A DNA stretch of 64,000 nt, taken from contig CALDSV010000016.1 in the NCBI GenBank assembly GCA_937924475.1, positions 1 through 64,000 on the forward strand, given 5' to 3'. Source of the stretch: an uncultured bacterium (GTDB lineage Bacteria; Nitrospirota; Thermodesulfovibrionia; Thermodesulfovibrionales; Thermodesulfovibrionaceae). The notes below the pieces were generated by a model, which saw only the letters and a program-made list of their open reading frames with translations, made no database searches and had not been told where the DNA came from. This document shows, piece by piece, positions 1,675-14,875 of the stretch. Each line of letters opens with the position of its first letter. Position 1 is the stretch's first letter. The position numbers were made by a program, and so were the translations under genes.

Positions 1675-2922
1675 TTATTTGCCCTCCTTATTTTTAATCC
1701 TTTGTAAAGCTTCTTCAAAGGAAGCAAGATTTGGTTTTATATGGTAAACTTCTACTGTTTTACCATCTAAAACTTCAGCAGTTTTTAAGCCATTGCCCGT
1801 GATACATAAGACAGTACAGTCTTTTTTATCAATTTTACCTTCTTTAAGAAGTTTAATATAAGTGGCGAGAGTGACTCCACCTGCTGTTTCAGCAAAAATA
1901 CCTTCAGTTCTTGCCAGTAGTTTAATGGCATCTATTATCTCTTCATCTGAGACATCCTCTATTGCTCCTCCACTTTCCCTTACAGCTTGCAAGGCATAAT
2001 AACCATCTGCAGGATTTCCAATTGCAAGGGATTTAGCTATAGTATTTGGCTTTACAGGTCTTATTACATCTGTACCTTGTTTAAAAGCTGTAGATATAGG
2101 AGAGCATCCTGTTGCTTGGGCTCCGTATATCTTAGTTTCTACCTCTTTTATAATGCCAATTTCTTTAAACTCTTTCAGTGCTTTCCACACTTTTGTAAGT
2201 AAAGAACCACTGGCACAGGGAACAACAATACTGTCAGGTGCTTCCCAGCCAAGTTGTTCCACTATTTCAAACCCTATGGTTTTTGAGCCTTCTGCATAAA
2301 AGGGACGGATGTTAATATTTACAAAGGCCCAACGATATTTGTTAGCTATTTCACTACAAAGTCTGTTTACATCATCATAGTTTCCGTCTACGGCAACTAA
2401 GTTTGGCTCATAAACAATGGAGGCAAGAATTTTACTTTGCTCAAGGGTTGCTGGTATAAAAATGAATCTGTTAAATCCTGATTTTGCTCCATGTGCTGAT
2501 ACAGCATGGGCAAGATTTCCAGTAGATGCACAAGCCACAGTGTCAAAGCCGAATTCTTTAGCTTTTGTTAATGCAACTGCCACGACTCTGTCTTTAAATG
2601 AAAGAGTTGGATGGGCAACAGTGTCATCTTTTATATAAAGTTCTTTTACTCCAAGAAATTTTGCTAAATTTTCAGCCTTTACAAGAGGAGTAAAACCTGA
2701 ATTAAGCCCTACCTGTGGTTCTCCATCTATTGGTAGAAGCTCTTTATATCTCCATAAAGTTTTTGGCCTTCTTTCTATGCTTTTTCTTGAAAGAGCTCTT
2801 TTTATCTTTGCATAATCATAAATCGCTTCAAGAGGTCCAAAACAGAATTCACACACATATATGGGTTCAATAGGGTATTCTCTTCCGCACTCTCTGCATT
2901 TGAGTCCCTTTACATGTCCCAT
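1675..2922 (-). CDS. Threonine synthase-like PLP enzyme with N-terminal zinc ribbon
   Basis: 415 residues. The N-terminus carries a zinc ribbon (C9, C12, C24, C27), followed by a fold type II PLP domain with the catalytic lysine K110 in PTLSFKDR and the ASTGN motif. Homology alone would give threonine synthase. The gene is immediately followed by the sulfur carrier and NIL genes, and another thrC lies in the same operon. A role as an O-phosphohomoserine-dependent sulfhydrylase that takes sulfur from the carrier thiocarboxylate is therefore plausible, in the way CysM works with CysO. This is inference. It is the first gene of the operon; the region upstream has no obvious attenuator or riboswitch fold. 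Confidence 0.85.
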   Translation of the reverse strand: MGHVKGLKCRECGREYPIEPIYVCEFCFGPLEAIYDYAKIKRALSRKSIERRPKTLWRYKELLPIDGEPQVGLNSGFTPLVKAENLAKFLGVKELYIKDDTVAHPTLSFKDRVVAVALTKAKEFGFDTVACASTGNLAHAVSAHGAKSGFNRFIFIPATLEQSKILASIVYEPNLVAVDGNYDDVNRLCSEIANKYRWAFVNINIRPFYAEGSKTIGFEIVEQLGWEAPDSIVVPCASGSLLTKVWKALKEFKEIGIIKEVETKIYGAQATGCSPISTAFKQGTDVIRPVKPNTIAKSLAIGNPADGYYALQAVRESGGAIEDVSDEEIIDAIKLLARTEGIFAETAGGVTLATYIKLLKEGKIDKKDCTVLCITGNGLKTAEVLDGKTVEVYHIKPNLASFEEALQRIKNKEGK

Positions 2923-3027: not shown

Positions 3028-3141
3028 TTACCACTTTTCAGCCATAATCTCCTTTCTTTTTCTCTTATATTCCTCTTCTGTAATCAGTCCGGTAGACATA
3101 TTTTTTAAATCTCCAACCAAAAAATTTTTGCTATAAGGTAA
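3028..3141 (-). pseudogene. Remnant resembling a SHOCT-type C-terminal domain
   Basis: An open stretch of 37 codons running from an in-frame stop to TAA encodes GDLKNMSTGLITEEEYKRKR and a short tail. It matches the look of SHOCT domains, which are short helical C-terminal modules with a GLITEEEYxxKRxEIL core. No upstream domain is in frame, and the 5' end overlaps the tail of the decayed gene at 3131. It is best read as the end of a lost gene, but a very short independent peptide starting at the ATG at 3099 cannot be excluded. Confidence 0.4.
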
Positions 3142-3335
3142 AAACTAATCTTCTACATGTTTTATCAACATAGTATCCTATGCCCTCTTTGCTTCTTTCA
3201 CAATTATAACTATCATCCTCACATTTTTTTCATAGAAATATTCTTCTGGATGGAAGATTCTCTTGGAATCTTAAACTCCAGCAGCTATCACAATAGTAAG
3301 AAGAACCCTCATAGAAAACTAACAAATTTTACCAT
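3131..3335 (-). pseudogene. Decayed paralogue of the cysteine-rich secreted protein at 5685
   Basis: On the minus strand a degenerate signal-peptide start (MVKFVSFL then a stop) is followed by pieces DSKRIFHPEEY and, in another frame, KCEDDSYNCERSKEGIGYYV then DKTCRR. These line up with GSQRNCYTEEY, KTCWEGSYDGDRSRQGMGYC and IDKICTR of the intact gene at 5685. In-frame stops interrupt the N-terminus. A single-base change in a run of seven A (around 3221-3230) shifts the frame between the two pieces. Part of the mature N-terminal region is missing altogether. This explains most of the 426-bp space between thrC2 and the next gene. Confidence 0.75.
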
Positions 3336-3348
3336 AAATATCTCTTTT

Positions 3349-5286
3349 TTATTTTGCCAAATCACTTAAGAAAACATAGTAGTTTGGAATAAAACCAAAA
3401 TATTCCCTTTTGTAAATAAGATAAATCTTTACTTTATATGTCCCTTTTTCTATAGCTTTAGCAATTTTATCGCTAATTCCAGCCAAATGATAAAAGGGCC
3501 CAGATTTTGTCATTCCTGTGTAATATAATAAATCGCCCACTTTTAAAGGTTCCGTCACATGAATCTCAATTGTTCTTTTAATAGGTGGCATAAGGGTACC
3601 AAATTTATTAAAATTTAACAAAGGTTCATCCTGGTGTTTTCCTTCTAACTTATAACTATCAGGTGACATCTCTTTAAATCTTTTTAACTCACCTTGTAGA
3701 TAGCTTATCTTCTCTTTTTTATCTGAATGGCTACTTTTTTCATACCTTTCTATTTCCATATCTATTGCTTTAATTGTAGCCTTAATGAGGTCTTCCTTTA
3801 AGGTGTCTTTAGTAAATGGTATGGGTTCTTCTATTCTGGGAAAAATTTCAAAATATGGTTCATTTGGTAACAACGGATAAATTAAATTCTTTACTGAAAT
3901 TGTGTAAGGTAATTTAGTATTTATTCCAAAATCTTTTCTTAAATCGTATTCCATCATAACTCCATCTGGAAACAAAGCTTTGCAGTAGTCAGGAGCTATT
4001 CTTAAAAAGGTGATTTCATAATGTTGTACATCTTTATCAACTCTTTTAGGGCTATTAATAACTTCGGCTTTCAAAGTACTTTTATCTGTGCATCCCTTAG
4101 AGTTAACTCTTATATAAAGTTTGTGCTCTTTTATATGTATTTCTCTAAGGATGAGCTCACCTAAATCTGTTGCTAAAAAGCTAAAGTTTCTTTCAGATTC
4201 TTCCGTGTTAATACCACCCCATTCTACTGCTGTAAAACCTCTTCTATTCTTTTTAAATATCTGAGGTTCCGTAAGACTTTGTTTACTGTTTGTACCTTTG
4301 AAATGCAAAAATACTCTGATAAAAGTATCGGGTTTTGGGTTTATGTCTACATGCAGGTTTTCACTTAAAAATTTCTTATCCATATACCTTATTTCGTAGT
4401 ATTTATGTGGTTTGAGTTCTTTTAACCAATAATTTTTAAAATCATCGGCTTCTTTTTCATTTAAACCCAACTTTGGTAGATAAATATCAAACCATTTAGA
4501 TAATTCGCTATAAGGTACTACCCACCCAGCGTTAGTTAATGGATAGGGCTTTGCTAAATTTACTTCATAAAAAAGGTAGTCATACTGGTTATTAATCTTT
4601 CCGGTTGGTGTAACTTTAACAATCCATTTACCATTGTAAGGGGGTATAGTTTTTGTAATATCACCTTTTGGAGCTAATCTTACCGTAATTGTTTGTTTTT
4701 TCTCTGGATATAAGTATAATGCTGGTTTTTTAACTATTGGGGTTTCTTCGCAAGGGATGAGCTTTTCTTTCACTAAAGAATAACAAATCACATCTTTCTT
4801 GCTGGGAAAGGCTGAAGCGTCTGAATCTTTATGTGTAAGGGCAAAAATTTCAATTTCTGGAGGACCAACTAAAGAGCGCGATTTAGGATACACAAATATT
4901 TTTTCAATTTTTATTCTATCCCCTAATACTACGGAATTTGTTTGAACGATATCTTTACCTTTTGAGAGTAAAACAGTTAGTTCATAAAAGGCGCCACTAC
5001 CACCATAATTCCCCACAAGAATAACAACAGCATCATTGATTCCATCATGGTTTAAATCTTTAAGCTCATAACGCTCGATTTTAACATCAACAATGTTATC
5101 CGGTGGGCCATACTGCCTGAAAATACCATTTTTAAGTGTCACTTTACCATTATAAAATGATAAGTAGTATGAAAAATTTTTAACATCATTTGGCTCAATG
5201 GAAAATCCATGATTAGAGCAAATAAAAAGAAAGAAAACCATTAGAAAAAAACTCTTTAAAATCTCTTTCTTATTCTTAATTTTCAT
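3349..5286 (-). CDS. Exported protein of unknown function with a KPALYLYP domain
   Basis: About 645 residues. The start at 5286 has GGAGGG about 9 bases upstream and opens directly on a signal peptide (KSFFLMVFFLFICSNHGFS); an upstream in-frame ATG at 5400 lacks this logic. An N-terminal part contains LKDLNHDGINDAVVIL, like the DLNGDGxxDAAV segments of secreted proteins with calcium- or propeller-like repeats. The middle part begins KPALYLYPEKKQTITVRL and continues to YDYLFYEV, a signature I recall from many uncharacterised bacterial and archaeal surface proteins. I recognise no enzyme motif. It is probably periplasmic or surface-exposed. It follows decayed small genes in the same orientation. 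Confidence 0.75.
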   Translation of the reverse strand: MKIKNKKEILKSFFLMVFFLFICSNHGFSIEPNDVKNFSYYLSFYNGKVTLKNGIFRQYGPPDNIVDVKIERYELKDLNHDGINDAVVILVGNYGGSGAFYELTVLLSKGKDIVQTNSVVLGDRIKIEKIFVYPKSRSLVGPPEIEIFALTHKDSDASAFPSKKDVICYSLVKEKLIPCEETPIVKKPALYLYPEKKQTITVRLAPKGDITKTIPPYNGKWIVKVTPTGKINNQYDYLFYEVNLAKPYPLTNAGWVVPYSELSKWFDIYLPKLGLNEKEADDFKNYWLKELKPHKYYEIRYMDKKFLSENLHVDINPKPDTFIRVFLHFKGTNSKQSLTEPQIFKKNRRGFTAVEWGGINTEESERNFSFLATDLGELILREIHIKEHKLYIRVNSKGCTDKSTLKAEVINSPKRVDKDVQHYEITFLRIAPDYCKALFPDGVMMEYDLRKDFGINTKLPYTISVKNLIYPLLPNEPYFEIFPRIEEPIPFTKDTLKEDLIKATIKAIDMEIERYEKSSHSDKKEKISYLQGELKRFKEMSPDSYKLEGKHQDEPLLNFNKFGTLMPPIKRTIEIHVTEPLKVGDLLYYTGMTKSGPFYHLAGISDKIAKAIEKGTYKVKIYLIYKREYFGFIPNYYVFLSDLAK

Positions 5287-5350
5287 ATACTTTCCCTCCA
5301 ACGCATGAAAAATATAACAAAGTTTAAAAATAAAATAAGCTCCGCGATTT

Positions 5351-5688
5351 TTATTGTTGAAGCAATAGCTGACAGCCTGACCGATTCTTCCATTGAGCAT
5401 TAAATTCTATCTTTTTAAGGATCAATAGTTTATTAACCTTCTCAAATGGACCCCTTTTAGCAAGACTTATCGCCGGCTCATAGGTAAAAGGTATGAATTT
5501 CCAGAACACCGATCTCTTTGCCTGCCTTAAGTTCTGTTCCAACAATAAGCACTTCTTCTTTTTTTGTTGTGGGATACAATTGCTTTTTGAGAATTTTGGC
5601 TTAACTGTGCATACTCAGGCCACCAATGCCCTCTATCAGCAAGGGATTCGGACAAATTTCCTGATAATGCCTCTTCCCTAAGATTCAT
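5351..5688 (-). pseudogene. Frameshifted small gene downstream of the cysteine-rich secreted protein
   Basis: The ATG at 5688 overlaps the TGA of the upstream gene (ATGA), the hallmark of a coupled gene. The frame reads about 53 codons, including LADRGHWWPEYAQLSQNSQK, then stops. Continuity is restored by shifting frame in a run of seven A near 5560 (KKEEVLIVGTELKAGKEIGV) and again near 5505 (FIPFTYEPAISLAKRGPFEK, then VNKLLILKKIEFNAQW). Joined, it would be a protein of about 110-120 residues. I do not recognise the family. Two frame changes, at least one in a homopolymer, point to real decay or to sequencing error. Confidence 0.6.
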
Positions 5689-5981
5689 TCACATACCGTC
5701 CTTGTGCATATTTTATCAATGCAGTATCCCATGCCCTGACGGCTTCTATCTCCATCATAGCTGCCTTCCCAGCAGGTCTTTCCACACACATATTCCTCTG
5801 TATAGCAGTTTCTTTGAGAACCTTCAAAATGGGGTTTAGGTGTAGGGATAGTATAGTTATAATTTTCGTTTCCACCACAACCTGGGCAGGTATCATAATA
5901 ATAACCCGAACCTGCATAGATATTTGCTGGGATAAGTATTAATTGAAAAAATAAAATCAGGGAAAACAAAAATTTAAGCAT
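5685..5981 (-). CDS. Small cysteine-rich secreted protein
   Basis: 98 residues from the ATG at 5981; a GTG one codon earlier is also possible. GGGAGG lies 8 bases before the ATG. A signal peptide (LKFLFSLILFFQLILIPANI) is followed by a mature part with nine cysteines, including a CPGC pair, and the tail GMGYCIDKICTRTVCE. The cysteine pattern suggests disulfides or metal binding outside the cytoplasm. A decayed paralogue lies at 3131. I do not recognise the family. It is the first gene of a short run that includes the broken gene at 5351. Confidence 0.7.
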   Translation of the reverse strand: MLKFLFSLILFFQLILIPANIYAGSGYYYDTCPGCGGNENYNYTIPTPKPHFEGSQRNCYTEEYVCGKTCWEGSYDGDRSRQGMGYCIDKICTRTVCE

Positions 5982-6225
5982 CACTTTAACCTCCCTTTAA
6001 ATGTATAATTTTTTAATTATAGCAATTTTTTCAACACCTATCTATGAATAGATTGGGATAAAAGTCCAGAAAAAGCTCCTTATGCATTGATAATTTTTAA
6101 AACAAGCACCTACTGGGTAAGGATTTTAATTTTAATAGGATATTCCCCTCCCTTTTTAATTAATAGCAGGTGTGTAAAGGCAGATTGATTCAGTAATATG
6201 GCAACCTCGCAATAACCCCCACTAT

Positions 6226-6660
6226 TCCGTCATTTCAAGCGTAGTGAAGAATTCTCCTCTTACTTTATCATTGCCATAAGCCCCCTAAACCTTCATTGCC
6301 CCCTCTGTCATTGCGAGCGAAGCGATAGCGTAGCAAAGCAATCTACTTTTGCACCCACTCTGTAATTGCAAGGGTGGACCCTTGATTGTCATTGCGACCC
6401 CGAGCTTTGAGAGGGGAAAGCAATCTCATCCTCCTCACTTTTTATGAAAAGCCTGCGATGAGATTGCCTCGCAACCTTCGGTTGTTCGCAACGACGAAGA
6501 GGGGACAATGACGAAGGGACGAGGTTGCCCCGGATGCATAAAGTCGTCCTCGCAAAGGCGGATTGCCATGCAGTCCTTCGGACTACTCGCAATAAAAGAA
6601 AAGAGGAGAGGCAAGTTTTTAATAATAGAATAAGAATAATGTAGCCTTGCAGTGACAAGA
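6226..6660. repeat. Cluster of dispersed palindromic repeats
   Basis: The 770-bp space between the divergent genes at 5981 and 6755 holds several imperfect inverted units of the type GTCATTGCGAG...AAGCAATCTC. They are visible near 6230, 6311, 6388-6521 and 6540-6600. The unit at 6388-6521 is an inverted repeat whose arms are themselves hairpins. About 100 bases of it (6415-6521) match the element at 14704-14830 almost exactly, including the central segment CTCACTTTTTATGAAAAGCC. No transposase is present. The remaining parts of the space (5985-6225) show nothing I can interpret. Confidence 0.8.
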
Positions 6661-6718
6661 GAGAAGTTTTTAACCCTGACAATTATAAAAAGTCATTACT
6701 CTCTCAAGTGATTATTTC

Positions 6719-6754
6719 TTGTTAGTTATCATAATCCAGTGCTATAATAAGCTT
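6719..6754 (+). promoter_or_regulatory. Sigma70-type promoter of mqnE giving a probable leaderless mRNA
   Basis: A -35 box TTGTTA (6719-6724) and a perfect -10 box TATAAT (6743-6748) are separated by 18 bases. Only six bases lie between the -10 box and the ATG at 6755, so transcription would start at or within a base or two of the A of the start codon. No Shine-Dalgarno sequence lies upstream. Confidence 0.65.
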
Positions 6755-7828
6755 ATGTTTGAGGAGATTAGGAGAAAAATAATAGAGGGACAAAGGTTAA
6801 CTAAGGAGGAAGGGATCACTCTTTTCAATACCGAGGACATCCATATCCTTGGTCAATTGGCTAATGAAGTTTCAAAAAAGATAAACTCAGATAGAGCTTA
6901 TTTTATAGTGAACAGACACATAAATCCTACCAATATTTGCATAAATAGATGCAAATTCTGCGCTTTCTCGAGATCTAAAGGTCAAGAAGGTGCCTATGAA
7001 TTAACAATAGATGATGTTATTTCTGAACTTAGGCAGACACAGGAAAAGATTGGTTATCTTACAGAGGTACATATTGTATCTGGCCTGCATCCTGAATGGA
7101 GTTTCCAATTCTATCTTGATATGATTTCCAAAATAAAAAATGAATTTCCCTTAATTACCATAAAAGCCTTTACAGCTGTAGAGATTGATTATTTTTCAAG
7201 AAAGTCAGGATTAACTATCGATGAAACCCTAACTAAACTTAAAGAAGCAGGCGTTAGTATAATGGCCGGTGGAGGAGCAGAAATTTTTAACTCTTCTGTA
7301 AGAAATAAAATATGTCCTGAAAAAATATCTGGTGAAAGATGGCTTGAAATCATAAAGACAGCCCATAAATTAGGAATCAAGACAAATGCTACCATGCTTT
7401 ATGGTCATGTAGAAACTTATAAAGACAGGATAGAGCATTTATCCAAGTTAAGAGAACTTCAGGATGAAACTCAGGGATTCCTTGCTTTTATACCTTTGAG
7501 TTATCAACCTCACAATACTCATATTAAGGTTCCTTATCCTAATGCCTTAGATGACTTAAAAACTATTGCTGTATCAAGACTTTTCCTTGACAATATACCC
7601 CATATAAAAGCTTACTGGATAATGCTTGGTGAAAAGCTTGCTCAACTTGCTCTTCTTTTTGGTGCAGATTGTCTTGAGGGGACTGTAATTGAAGAGAAAA
7701 TTGCCCATTCTGCTGGAGCTCTTTCAAAAAAGGGTATCTCTATTAATGAACTTGCTCATTTAATAAGAGAGACAGGTAAAATTCCTGTTGAGAGAGATTC
7801 CTTTTATAATGTGATAAGAATATGGTAA
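6755..7828 (+). CDS. mqnE: Aminofutalosine synthase MqnE
   Basis: 357-residue radical SAM enzyme that adds the chorismate-derived enolpyruvyl benzoate to the purine nucleoside, giving aminofutalosine in menaquinone synthesis. The 4Fe-4S cluster cysteines are C62, C66 and C69 in CINRCKFC. FTAVEI and GGGAEIF motifs fit MqnE rather than MqnC. The ATG at 6755 is chosen over an in-frame TTG at 6719 because that TTG is part of the -35 box and the conserved protein begins here. It overlaps mqnC by 7 bp. The MqnE/MqnC split follows the first being more divergent from the HGFSPPE motif of MqnC. Confidence 0.9.
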   Translation: MFEEIRRKIIEGQRLTKEEGITLFNTEDIHILGQLANEVSKKINSDRAYFIVNRHINPTNICINRCKFCAFSRSKGQEGAYELTIDDVISELRQTQEKIGYLTEVHIVSGLHPEWSFQFYLDMISKIKNEFPLITIKAFTAVEIDYFSRKSGLTIDETLTKLKEAGVSIMAGGGAEIFNSSVRNKICPEKISGERWLEIIKTAHKLGIKTNATMLYGHVETYKDRIEHLSKLRELQDETQGFLAFIPLSYQPHNTHIKVPYPNALDDLKTIAVSRLFLDNIPHIKAYWIMLGEKLAQLALLFGADCLEGTVIEEKIAHSAGALSKKGISINELAHLIRETGKIPVERDSFYNVIRIW

Positions 7829-8865
7829 GAATTAATACCAAAGAAGCTCTGGAGATGTTAAAGGAATCATCATTGTATGAACTGGGTAAAAAGGCTGATG
7901 ATTTTCGGAAAAAGCTTCATCCTGAAGGAATTGTAACTTTTGTAATAGACAGAAACATAAATTATACAAACATATGCATCAATAAGTGTAAATTTTGTGC
8001 TTTCTGGAGACCCTCCAATCATTCTGAAGCCTATGTCATATCAAAAGAGGAACTTGCTAAAAAAATTCAGGAAACCTTAGAAAAAGGAGGAACTCAAATT
8101 CTTCTTCAGGGAGGAGTTAATCCTGATCTTGGTATTGACTTTTATCTCGATATGCTTAAATTTATAAAGGAGAATTTTAAAATCCATGTTCATGGTTTTT
8201 CACCTCCTGAAATTTCTTTTCTATCGAAAAGAGAAGGTCTTACTATAAGAGAGGTCCTTACAAAACTTAGAGAGGCAGGATTAGACAGCATTCCCGGAGG
8301 TGGTGCAGAGATTCTCTCCGATAGAGTAAGGGAACTTCAGTCACCTAACAAAGTTAAGTCAGAGGAATGGTTAGAGGTAATGCGGCAAGCCCATCTTATT
8401 GGAATGAAAACATCTGCCACCATGATGTTCGGAAGTATTGACAAAGAAGAGGATATAATTGAACATCTTAGTTCAATAAGAAAACTTCAGGATGAAACCG
8501 GAGGTTTTACCGCCTTTATTCCGTGGACGTTTCAGCCAGGAAATACAGAGCTTAAAATAGAGCATCCTGAGATTATGCCAGCTGGGTCCGTAAAATATCT
8601 AAGAGTACTTGCATTGAGCAGGATTTACCTTGATAATTTTAGAAATATTCAAGTTTCATGGGTAACTCAAGGAATTAAGATTGCTCAGATAGGACTTCGT
8701 TTTGGAGCAAATGATTTCGGTTCTACGATGCTTGAAGAAAATGTTGTAAGAGCTGCAGGAGTAAGTTATAGAGTCAGTCTGGAAGAAATAATAGAGGCTA
8801 TAAAGCAAACTGGATTTAAGCCAGCTCAGAGAGATAACAATTACAATATTTTGAGATTTTTTTGA
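7822..8865 (+). CDS. mqnC: Cyclic dehypoxanthinylfutalosine synthase MqnC
   Basis: 347-residue radical SAM enzyme that cyclises dehypoxanthinylfutalosine, a later step of the futalosine menaquinone route. Cluster cysteines are C52, C56 and C59 (CINKCKFC). HGFSPPEI, GLDSIPGGGAEIL and the C-terminal RDNNYNILRF are typical of MqnC. It is clearly a paralogue of the preceding mqnE, sharing the GGGAEI and LQDETxGFxAFIP segments. The start codon lies inside the end of mqnE, so the two are coupled. MqnA is seven genes into the same run; MqnB and MqnD are not in this window. Confidence 0.93.
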   Translation: MVRINTKEALEMLKESSLYELGKKADDFRKKLHPEGIVTFVIDRNINYTNICINKCKFCAFWRPSNHSEAYVISKEELAKKIQETLEKGGTQILLQGGVNPDLGIDFYLDMLKFIKENFKIHVHGFSPPEISFLSKREGLTIREVLTKLREAGLDSIPGGGAEILSDRVRELQSPNKVKSEEWLEVMRQAHLIGMKTSATMMFGSIDKEEDIIEHLSSIRKLQDETGGFTAFIPWTFQPGNTELKIEHPEIMPAGSVKYLRVLALSRIYLDNFRNIQVSWVTQGIKIAQIGLRFGANDFGSTMLEENVVRAAGVSYRVSLEEIIEAIKQTGFKPAQRDNNYNILRFF

Positions 8866-8907
8866 TGAGACTCAGGGAATATTAATTTTAGAGTTATGGA
8901 GGGAAAT

Positions 8908-9849
8908 ATGGCTGAAATCTTTGATGTAATTATAATAGGAGGAGGACCTGCTGGTCTTACAGCAGGAATCTATGCATCCAGGGCAAATTTAAAAACTCTC
9001 ATACTTGATAAATCAAAAACTGCTGGAGCCTTAGCCTACGCATCTTTAATTGAAAACTATCCTGGCTTAGAAAAACCTTTAACTGGCAAAGAACTCTTAG
9101 AAAGAATTCGTTCTCAAGCATTGTCCTTGGGAGCAAAATATGAAGAACAGCAAGTAGTAGGTGTAGATTTGATTTTAGAACCAAAGGAAGTTGTAACAAT
9201 GAATGGAAGTTATAAGGGAAAAGCAATTATTATAGCTACAGGTTCCATGGGTAGAAAACCAACAATCAAAGGGGAAAGAGAATTACTTGGTAAAGGTGTT
9301 AGTTACTGTGCTGTTTGTGATGCTCCTTTTTTTAGAGGTAAAAAGGTAGCAGTCCTTGGTGACAGTGAAGAAGCAGTAAAAGAGGCTCAATATTTGACAG
9401 AGTTTGCAGATGAATGTTTCTTAATATCCTCTTCATCAAAACTTAAAGTGAGCCCTGACCATGCTGTTTTCTCTAATCCTAAGATTAAAATTCTTTTATC
9501 ACATGCTGTAAAAGAGATTAAGGGTTTAGATTTTGTAACAGCAGTTTTACTAAAAGATGAAAATGGACAGGAAAAACACATTGAAGTTTCAGGAGTCTTT
9601 GTTTATATTCAGGGTTCTCAACCAATAACAGATTTTCTCGGAGAATCCATAAGTCTTGATGAGAGAGGATTTATTTTGGTGGATGAATTTATGCAAACTA
9701 ATATTGAAGGAGTTTTTGCAGCTGGAGACGTTGCAAGCCCCTATTTTAGACAGGTGGTCATAGCTTGTAGTCAAGGTGCAATTGCTGCTCTTAGCGCCGA
9801 GAAATATATAAGAGGACGAAGCAGAATAAAATCTGACTGGCATGGGTGA
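8908..9849 (+). CDS. Thioredoxin reductase-like flavoprotein lacking the NADPH motif
   Basis: 313 residues from the ATG at 8908, which has GGAGGG at 4-5 bases; an ATG at 8896 overlaps that ribosome-binding site. The FAD-binding GGGPAG and the C-terminal GVFAAGDV...RQVVIACSQGA are present. The redox-active pair is CAVC (C134/C137) instead of the usual CATC. The NADPH-binding domain is abnormal: the loop reads GDSEEAVKEA, and the basic HRRxxFRA motif that holds the 2'-phosphate is replaced by SSSSKLKVSPDHA. Such proteins may use ferredoxin or another donor in place of NADPH. It overlaps the following HEAT gene by 8 bp. Confidence 0.85.
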   Translation: MAEIFDVIIIGGGPAGLTAGIYASRANLKTLILDKSKTAGALAYASLIENYPGLEKPLTGKELLERIRSQALSLGAKYEEQQVVGVDLILEPKEVVTMNGSYKGKAIIIATGSMGRKPTIKGERELLGKGVSYCAVCDAPFFRGKKVAVLGDSEEAVKEAQYLTEFADECFLISSSSKLKVSPDHAVFSNPKIKILLSHAVKEIKGLDFVTAVLLKDENGQEKHIEVSGVFVYIQGSQPITDFLGESISLDERGFILVDEFMQTNIEGVFAAGDVASPYFRQVVIACSQGAIAALSAEKYIRGRSRIKSDWHG

Positions 9850-14586: not shown

Positions 14587-14676
14587 TTTATGACTCCTTT
14601 AAGAAGATGATTTATATTTTATCATTTTCTTTGAAAAACTTTTAACGAAAAGAGGCTATTAGACGCTCTGTCCCTC

Positions 14677-14875
14677 CGTCATTACGAGGGTATACCCCTA
14701 ATTGTCATTGCGAGGGTGCTTCAGCACCCGAAGCAATCTCTTCCTCCTCACTTTTTATGAAAAGCCTACAATGAGATTGCTTCGCACCCCTCGGGTGCTC
14801 GCAATGATGAAGAAGGGAAAATGACGGAAGGAGGGTATTGACACGGCTCAATTCTTGAGCCTCCCAATGACGGAT
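14677..14875. repeat. Nested palindromic element, second copy
   Basis: Most of the 361-bp divergent space between 14586 and 14948 is filled by this element. The outer ends TCCGTCATTACGAGG and the complement of CCTCCCAATGACGGA form terminal inverted repeats. Inside, an arm GCGAGGGTGCTTCAGCACCC is a hairpin itself. The arm after the centre (GAGATTGCTTCGCACCCCTC and onward) mirrors it. The central 50-100 bases match 6415-6521 closely. No open reading frame of a transposase is present, so this is a non-autonomous or REP-like repeat. Between 14876 and 14947 lies only AT-rich leader of the next gene. Confidence 0.8.

What the first reader, a model, noticed from the sequence alone, without database searches (positions are those of the whole stretch)
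3131..5984. Small cysteine-rich secreted gene family in active decay
An intact nine-cysteine secreted protein (5685) has a clearly related but broken copy at 3131. Its own downstream, ATGA-coupled gene (5351-5688) is broken by two frameshifts. At least two of the breaks lie in runs of seven A. Such rapid duplication and decay of short exported proteins is seen for toxins, bacteriocin-like peptides or surface antigens. Phase-variable homopolymer switching is another reading.
Basis: partly seen in the sequence, partly recalled or inferred. Interest (0 to 1): 0.55.

Follow-up and report, generated by a model that had tools for sequence, protein, structure and literature searches.

The report
Conserved secreted protein amid gene fossils
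A small, well-conserved exported protein with eight cysteines sits beside two old gene fragments; the fragments are ordinary gene fossils rather than on-off switches, and the locus looks like a stray piece of a larger set of genes for exported, caspase-like proteins.

Summary
The 99-aa exported protein (5685-5984, -) is intact, with eight cysteines, not nine, and under purifying selection (dN/dS 0.13 and 0.07). Full-length relatives were found only in one sister species and one genome of another family. The broken copy near 3131 is real (27.2 bits against a best of 11.1 in shuffles), but the sister species carries the same relic, further eroded, so it is old.

The "ATGA-coupled gene" 5351-5688 belongs to a different family. 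It is a fragment (about codons 21-103 of 345) of a DUF2330-like exported protein with an intact paralogue on another contig. A7 runs are not enriched (2 seen, 1.16 expected), and neither relic could be restored by one tract, so phase variation is not supported.

Between the relics lies an intact 645-aa exported protein. Its relatives, the DUF2330-like gene and the 99-aa gene's relative in G022 lie in or beside a cluster for exported TPR-CHAT and WD40-caspase proteins. Best reading: a detached piece of that cluster with two live genes and two fossils. The biochemical role is not shown.

The parts
5685..5984 (-). Intact gene for a 99-aa exported protein with eight cysteines
   Evidence: ORF; orthologues G013 85% and G022 81%; dN/dS 0.128 and 0.072; cysteines conserved
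3349..5286 (-). Intact gene for a 645-aa exported protein; two more in-frame starts extend the frame to 683 aa at 5400
   Evidence: ORF; 84% in G013 and 40-52% in other genus members; dN/dS 0.233
3143..3316 (-). Relic of a second copy of the 99-aa gene: no leader with a start seen, an in-frame stop or frame break, three of eight cysteines kept in the profile alignment
   Evidence: same relic in G013
5402..5647 (-). Relic of a DUF2330-like exported protein gene (about codons 21-103 of 345), two frame breaks
3224..3230 (-). Run of seven A in the first relic
   Evidence: deleted in G013
5559..5565 (-). Run of seven A at the first frame break of the second relic
1675..2922 (-). thrC-like gene (name from my reading of the translation) that flanks the island

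Best explanation
The locus is a small island beside a thrC-like gene, shared by this genome and one sister species, and made of pieces of a larger gene cluster for exported proteins. Two pieces are live: the 99-aa eight-cysteine protein and the 645-aa protein, probably co-transcribed (about 50 bp apart in the sister). Two are fossils: a second copy of the Cys-rich gene and an internal fragment of a DUF2330-like gene. Shown: anatomy, orthology, purifying selection on both live genes, shared age of the first relic, cluster context of relatives. Inferred: both live proteins are exported, the eight cysteines form disulfides outside the cytoplasm, and the Cys-rich protein is a stable structural or binding partner of the 645-aa protein in the cell envelope. 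Also inferred: cluster segments were copied or moved here and the redundant ones decayed by ordinary frameshifts and deletions.
For: Both live genes are conserved in order in G013 with dN/dS 0.13 and 0.23. The first relic is shared with G013. The second matches an intact gene of the own cluster on contig C34. 645-type genes lie next to TPR-CHAT in G001, G009 and G012. The G022 orthologue of the 99-aa gene lies 168 bp upstream of a TPR gene, cut by the contig end, that matches this genome's TPR-CHAT. The other 12 genus genomes with a thrC match have no island piece within 1.5 kb of it, apart from about 45 bp of thrC leader in 5.
Against: G013 keeps both live genes with no CHAT, C14 or serpin match, so they do not depend on those proteins. 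G005, G008 and G011 have 645-type genes but no CHAT or C14 match. Partnership of the two proteins is not tested, and in G022 the 99-aa relative occurs without a 645-type match. Insertion of the second fragment in G000 cannot be told from its loss in G013. Structure models were poor.
Confidence: 0.6

Rival explanations
1. The 99-aa protein is a regulator (inhibitor, decoy or substrate) of the exported caspase-fold proteins TPR-CHAT and WD40-C14, one of several small Cys-rich partners, with serpins as an alternative in some species.
For: In G022 the gene is directly upstream of a TPR-CHAT-like gene. Other small Cys-rich proteins lie in the clusters of G000, G001, G002, G009, G012 and G014. Serpins in the genus were found in 2 of 16 genomes, both with C14 and in the cluster.
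Against: G013 has the gene but no CHAT, C14 or serpin match. No small Cys-rich gene passing the filters was seen in the cluster stretches of G037, G016 and G039, nor below 190 aa in G026. The other small Cys-rich proteins are not shown to be homologous: a profile of the three orthologues did not report the G011 one.
Confidence: 0.12
2. Phase variation: the A7 tracts switch the broken frames on and off by slipped-strand mispairing.
For: An A run of seven lies in each broken stretch.
Against: Runs are not enriched. The second stretch has another break outside a run and lacks start, leader and about 240 C-terminal codons. The first has further losses, and in G013 the run itself is deleted.
Confidence: 0.03
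3. The 99-aa protein is a toxin or bacteriocin-like peptide with a decayed immunity gene.
For: Small, exported, Cys-rich, with broken frames beside it.
Against: The adjacent broken frame is a fragment of an unrelated 345-aa protein. G013 and G022 share no small partner gene beside it: the next gene downstream is the 643-aa gene in one and TPR-CHAT in the other. No Pfam or NCBIfam match. Mature part strongly conserved.
Confidence: 0.07
4. The frame breaks are assembly or sequencing errors in a draft genome.
For: The genome is a draft of 80 contigs and homopolymer runs are error-prone.
Against: Both stretches lack coding parts, not only frame, and diverge by about 19% from the intact paralogue in the second case. 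The first relic is independently present in G013.
Confidence: 0.03

Closest known systems
DUF2330 (Pfam PF10092), for the second relic's intact paralogue
   Same: 345-aa exported protein, weak match over residues 35-215 (E 6.2e-5)
   Different: 22.8 bits, below the curated cut-off of 24.7; the window carries only a fragment
Exported TPR-CHAT (PF12770) and WD40-caspase (PF00656) proteins, for the cluster the pieces resemble
   Same: The own genome has both on contig C34, with the DUF2330-like gene next to TPR-CHAT
   Different: The window island has neither; G013 has neither anywhere
Ruminococcus albus plasmid gene annotated as BspA family leucine-rich repeat surface protein (NC_014825.1), for residues 184-358 of the 645-aa protein
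   Same: 31.9% identity, E 5e-17
   Different: 27% of the query; the annotation refers to another part of that protein as far as I can tell
Phase-variable genes with homopolymer tracts (general knowledge)
   Same: A7 runs in broken frames
   Different: Frames truncated beyond repair by one tract; run not conserved in G013

Membership tests
Orthologue group of the 99-aa protein (window, G013, G022) | Full-length similarity with all eight cysteines aligned | tested here: met
   85% and 81% identity, eight of eight cysteines
Orthologue group of the 99-aa protein, for the G011 82-aa protein | Found by a profile made without it | tested here: not met
   Not reported at E<=10 by the three-orthologue profile; its match is by construction
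DUF2330 (PF10092), intact paralogue of the second relic | Score over the curated cut-off | tested here: not met
   22.8 bits against 24.7
Phase-variable gene | A frame that one tract change would open over its full length | tested here: not met
   Both stretches are truncated and have other breaks
Phase-variable gene | Mixed tract lengths within a population | not testable with these tools
   No reads available
Toxin-immunity or bacteriocin pair | Conserved small partner gene | tested here: not met
   Next genes differ between G013 and G022
Toxin-immunity or bacteriocin pair | Growth inhibition | not testable with these tools
   Needs experiment
Member of the exported CHAT/C14 cluster | Co-location with CHAT or C14 genes | tested here: inconclusive
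   Yes for the G022 relative; no for the window and G013 copies

The most novel reading that the evidence does not exclude
The 99-aa protein is a new type of disulfide-rich regulator of exported caspase-fold proteins in this order, one of several interchangeable small Cys-rich partners, with serpins taking that place in some species; the island is a surviving, detached regulator pair.
Probability: 0.1. Interest if true: 0.65.

Novelty: new member of a known kind. Interest (0 to 1): 0.25.

Why it matters
By itself the locus is an ordinary mix of live, lineage-restricted exported proteins and gene fossils. It shows that a frame break in an A7 run is not enough to call phase variation, and that a start overlapping the previous stop need not mean a coupled gene. 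Its wider value is as a pointer to a cluster of exported caspase-fold proteins (TPR-CHAT and WD40-C14) that in some species also encodes serpins and small Cys-rich proteins. If these work together, a bacterial extracytoplasmic protease-inhibitor system would become testable.

Tried and rejected
Family libraries gave no name for the 99-aa or 645-aa protein: Pfam listed nothing for the first and one match far below its cut-off for the second, NCBIfam nothing for either. Five other small exported proteins of the clusters had no Pfam match at E<=0.01. I did not scan PHROGs or PADLOC. PDB profile searches gave nothing useful (best E 0.096 and 3.8). No match of the 99-aa protein in plasmid or phage records. 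A pattern scan of genome contigs, which finds close relatives only and may leave out the own genome, gave one locus, the G022 contig. Structure models were too weak (mean pLDDT 54.7 and 44.0), so I ran no fold search. Rfam at gathering thresholds and the tRNA scan found nothing in the window.

The G011 82-aa protein has a similar cysteine spacing and sits beside 645-type genes, but an independent profile did not support homology, so I dropped it. Promoter-like sites are no more frequent than in shuffles (4 found, mean 3.5).

Transfer of the 99-aa gene between families was considered. HslU is 75% identical between G022 and G000, the 99-aa protein 81%, and the TPR-CHAT start 82% over 105 residues by BLASTP but 75% over 122 residues in the genome search. 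dS for the 99-aa gene is 1.6. This fits strong constraint as well as old transfer, so I left it open.

Literature: 0 papers for CHAT domain + serpin + caspase + bacteria + secreted, Thermodesulfovibrio + serpin, cysteine-rich + Thermodesulfovibrio, DUF2330. Searches listed papers on metacaspases and caspase homologues, serpins, conflict systems and unrelated subjects. I read passages of one paper only (PMC3501461); of the others I saw the listing and, where shown, the start of the abstract.

Mended since: wrongly placed fields, the serpin-C14 distance (now between ORFs), the second TPR-CHAT identity figure, and the clusters without small Cys-rich genes. Odds for the novel case are unchanged.

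Full report
What is there. The window is G000:C16:1-64000 of a 1.87-Mb draft genome in 80 contigs. No call names the organism; from recall it resembles Thermodesulfovibrio. On the minus strand the locus reads: the 99-aa gene (5984-5685), a broken stretch (5647-5402 by homology), an intact 645-aa gene (5286-3349), a second broken stretch (3316-3143), then a thrC-like gene (2922-1675). On the other side mqnE-like and mqnC-like genes begin near 6719 on the plus strand. The names thrC, mqnE and mqnC are my reading of the translations.

The live small gene. The 99-aa protein has a hydrophobic leader and eight cysteines, all conserved in its orthologues in G013 (same genus) and G022 (another family of the order). 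It was found in 3 of 61 relatives. Of 395 genomes of the phylum, 5 had a match at E<=0.001: the three full-length ones and two partial ones at 31-38% identity (G167, and G134 with stops inside), which I treat as chance. Of 176 genomes of the order searched with alignment A1, 5 had a match at E<=0.01: the three, G011 (itself a row of A1) and a weak one with two stops, G414. dN/dS is 0.128 against G013 and 0.072 against G022, where dS is 1.6. The mature part (25-99) is identical at 66 of 75 positions in G022 and 64 of 75 in G013; the last 28 residues at 28 and 25 of 28. That is constraint, not decay or fast diversification.

The relic at 3131. A profile of the three orthologues scores it 27.2 bits; the best reported shuffle of the same frame scores 11.1. 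I saw no leader with a start codon, and there is an in-frame stop or frame break near the A7 run; three of eight cysteines are kept in the profile alignment. G013 carries the same relic at the same place with an internal deletion that removes the A7 run. On its own the G013 relic scores only 6.8 bits with the protein profile (E 0.47). Its identity rests on DNA similarity to the window stretch (80.6% over 124 bp) and to the live gene (75.9% over 58 bp). The loss therefore most likely predates the split of the two species.

The 'ATGA-coupled' frame. A DNA search of 61 relatives found related DNA in 5: this genome (contig C34, 81%), G037 (76%), G012 (72%), G004 (71%), and a 24-base match in G009 that I discount. 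The C34 copy is an intact 345-aa protein with a hydrophobic leader, weakly like DUF2330 (22.8 bits, cut-off 24.7). The window stretch matches 5402-5647, about codons 21-103. Three frames are needed to read it, so two breaks are real, one of them in the A7 run. The ATG that overlaps the end of the 99-aa gene lies outside the homology, so the coupling is accidental. In G013 the stretch is missing and the two live genes are about 50 bp apart. Insertion here and loss there cannot be told apart.

A7 runs. 92 runs of seven or more A or T occur in the window, 74 of them in ORFs of 150 aa or more and 18 in the remaining 8062 bases. At that density 1.16 are expected in the 518 bp of the two broken stretches; 2 are seen, P about 0.32.

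The 645-aa gene. dN/dS is 0.233 against G013. 12 of 61 relatives have a match: eight of the same genus (this genome included) and four of other families, these four over the N-terminal part only. In G001, G009 and G012 the 645-type gene lies next to TPR-CHAT. In G005 it is followed by the start of a WD40-like frame at the contig end; in G008 it lies between a TPR-like and a SIMPL-like frame; in G011 it is on a 4.2-kb contig with two small Cys-rich frames (the last three labels are by eye). These three genomes have no CHAT or C14 match. In G001 the gene is split into two overlapping frames and continues on another contig. Residues 184-358 match one plasmid gene of Ruminococcus albus at 31.9%.

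The cluster. On contig C34 this genome holds a run of mostly exported proteins: CRP-like regulator, SLH-TPR protein, TPR-CHAT, the DUF2330-like gene, TPR/PDZ, WD40 and WD40-C14, GNA1162-like, DUF4384, and a 95-aa protein with 11 cysteines. In the genus CHAT was found in 5 of 16 genomes and C14 in 7 of 16; in each of the 5 CHAT genomes a C14 match lies within 15 kb on the same contig. Serpins were found in 2 of 16, G012 and G014, both in the cluster; in G014 the serpin and C14 frames are 234 bp apart. Serpin-like frames are also in the G037 and G026 clusters by eye; Pfam was run only on the G012 one at that stage. Small Cys-rich frames of up to 151 aa were seen in the clusters of G000, G001, G002, G009, G012 and G014, and not in the stretches fetched from G026, G037 and G039; in G016 the only such frame (140 aa, six cysteines) lies well beyond the cluster among unrelated genes. 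In G022 the orthologue of the 99-aa gene lies 168 bp upstream of a TPR frame, cut by the contig end, which is 82% identical to this genome's TPR-CHAT over 105 residues, or 75% over 122 in the genome search.

Island site. The thrC-like gene was found in 14 of 16 genus genomes. In the 12 other than G000 and G013 no island piece was found within 1.5 kb, apart from about 45 bp of thrC leader in 5. Of these 12, five have an ABC-transporter-like frame just upstream of thrC and G014 another gene; for the six with thrC on the minus strand I did not print the upstream frames.

Against my reading. G013 keeps both live genes without a CHAT, C14 or serpin match. G022 has the 99-aa gene without a 645-type match. 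The small Cys-rich proteins of other clusters are not shown to be related. No usable structure was obtained.

What is known. One paper, of which I saw passages only, reports that Nitrospirae had 1.11 metacaspases per 1000 proteins and that WD40 and TPR are frequent partner domains; the words serpin and CHAT do not occur in it (PMC3501461). That fits the cluster but says nothing on this island.

Mechanism and odds. Anatomy (two live genes, two unrelated fossils, no switch): about 0.9. Origin from the exported-protein cluster: about 0.65. Joint work of the two live proteins in the envelope, the small one held by disulfides: about 0.3, inferred. Regulation of caspase-fold proteins by the small protein: about 0.1.

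Noticed in passing
G000:C34 about 38000-61000 (L028, L029); G012 (L030, L031); G014 (L096): Cluster of exported proteins with TPR-CHAT, WD40-caspase (C14), CRP-like regulator, SLH-TPR, small Cys-rich proteins and, in G012 and G014, serpins; C14 within 15 kb of CHAT in 5 of 5 CHAT genomes of the genus.
   Followed up: partly
L096:12963-15254 (G014): Caspase-like (C14) and serpin frames 234 bp apart on the same strand.
   Followed up: no
L006:855-1227 (G022): Next to the 99-aa orthologue, two overlapping frames look like one Cys-rich exported gene with a frame break; not tested for homology.
   Followed up: no
window:6181-6600: Intergenic element with inverted-looking GC-rich words; a partial copy (78% over 162 bp) lies at 14674-14832, and most of it is absent from the same place in G013.
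   Followed up: no
window:1-3018 against 3084-9000: DNA identity to G013 is 96% on the thrC side and 79-90% beyond it; dS is 0.12 for thrC and 0.22-0.63 for five genes on the other side, which may mark a recombination edge.
   Followed up: no
L022:2487-2738, L023:2866-3144, L034:18350-18640 and the 99-aa protein: A short IPTPTP or IPTPKP stretch recurs in otherwise dissimilar small exported proteins: six ORFs in 135278 aa scanned, three of them the 99-aa orthologues.
   Followed up: no
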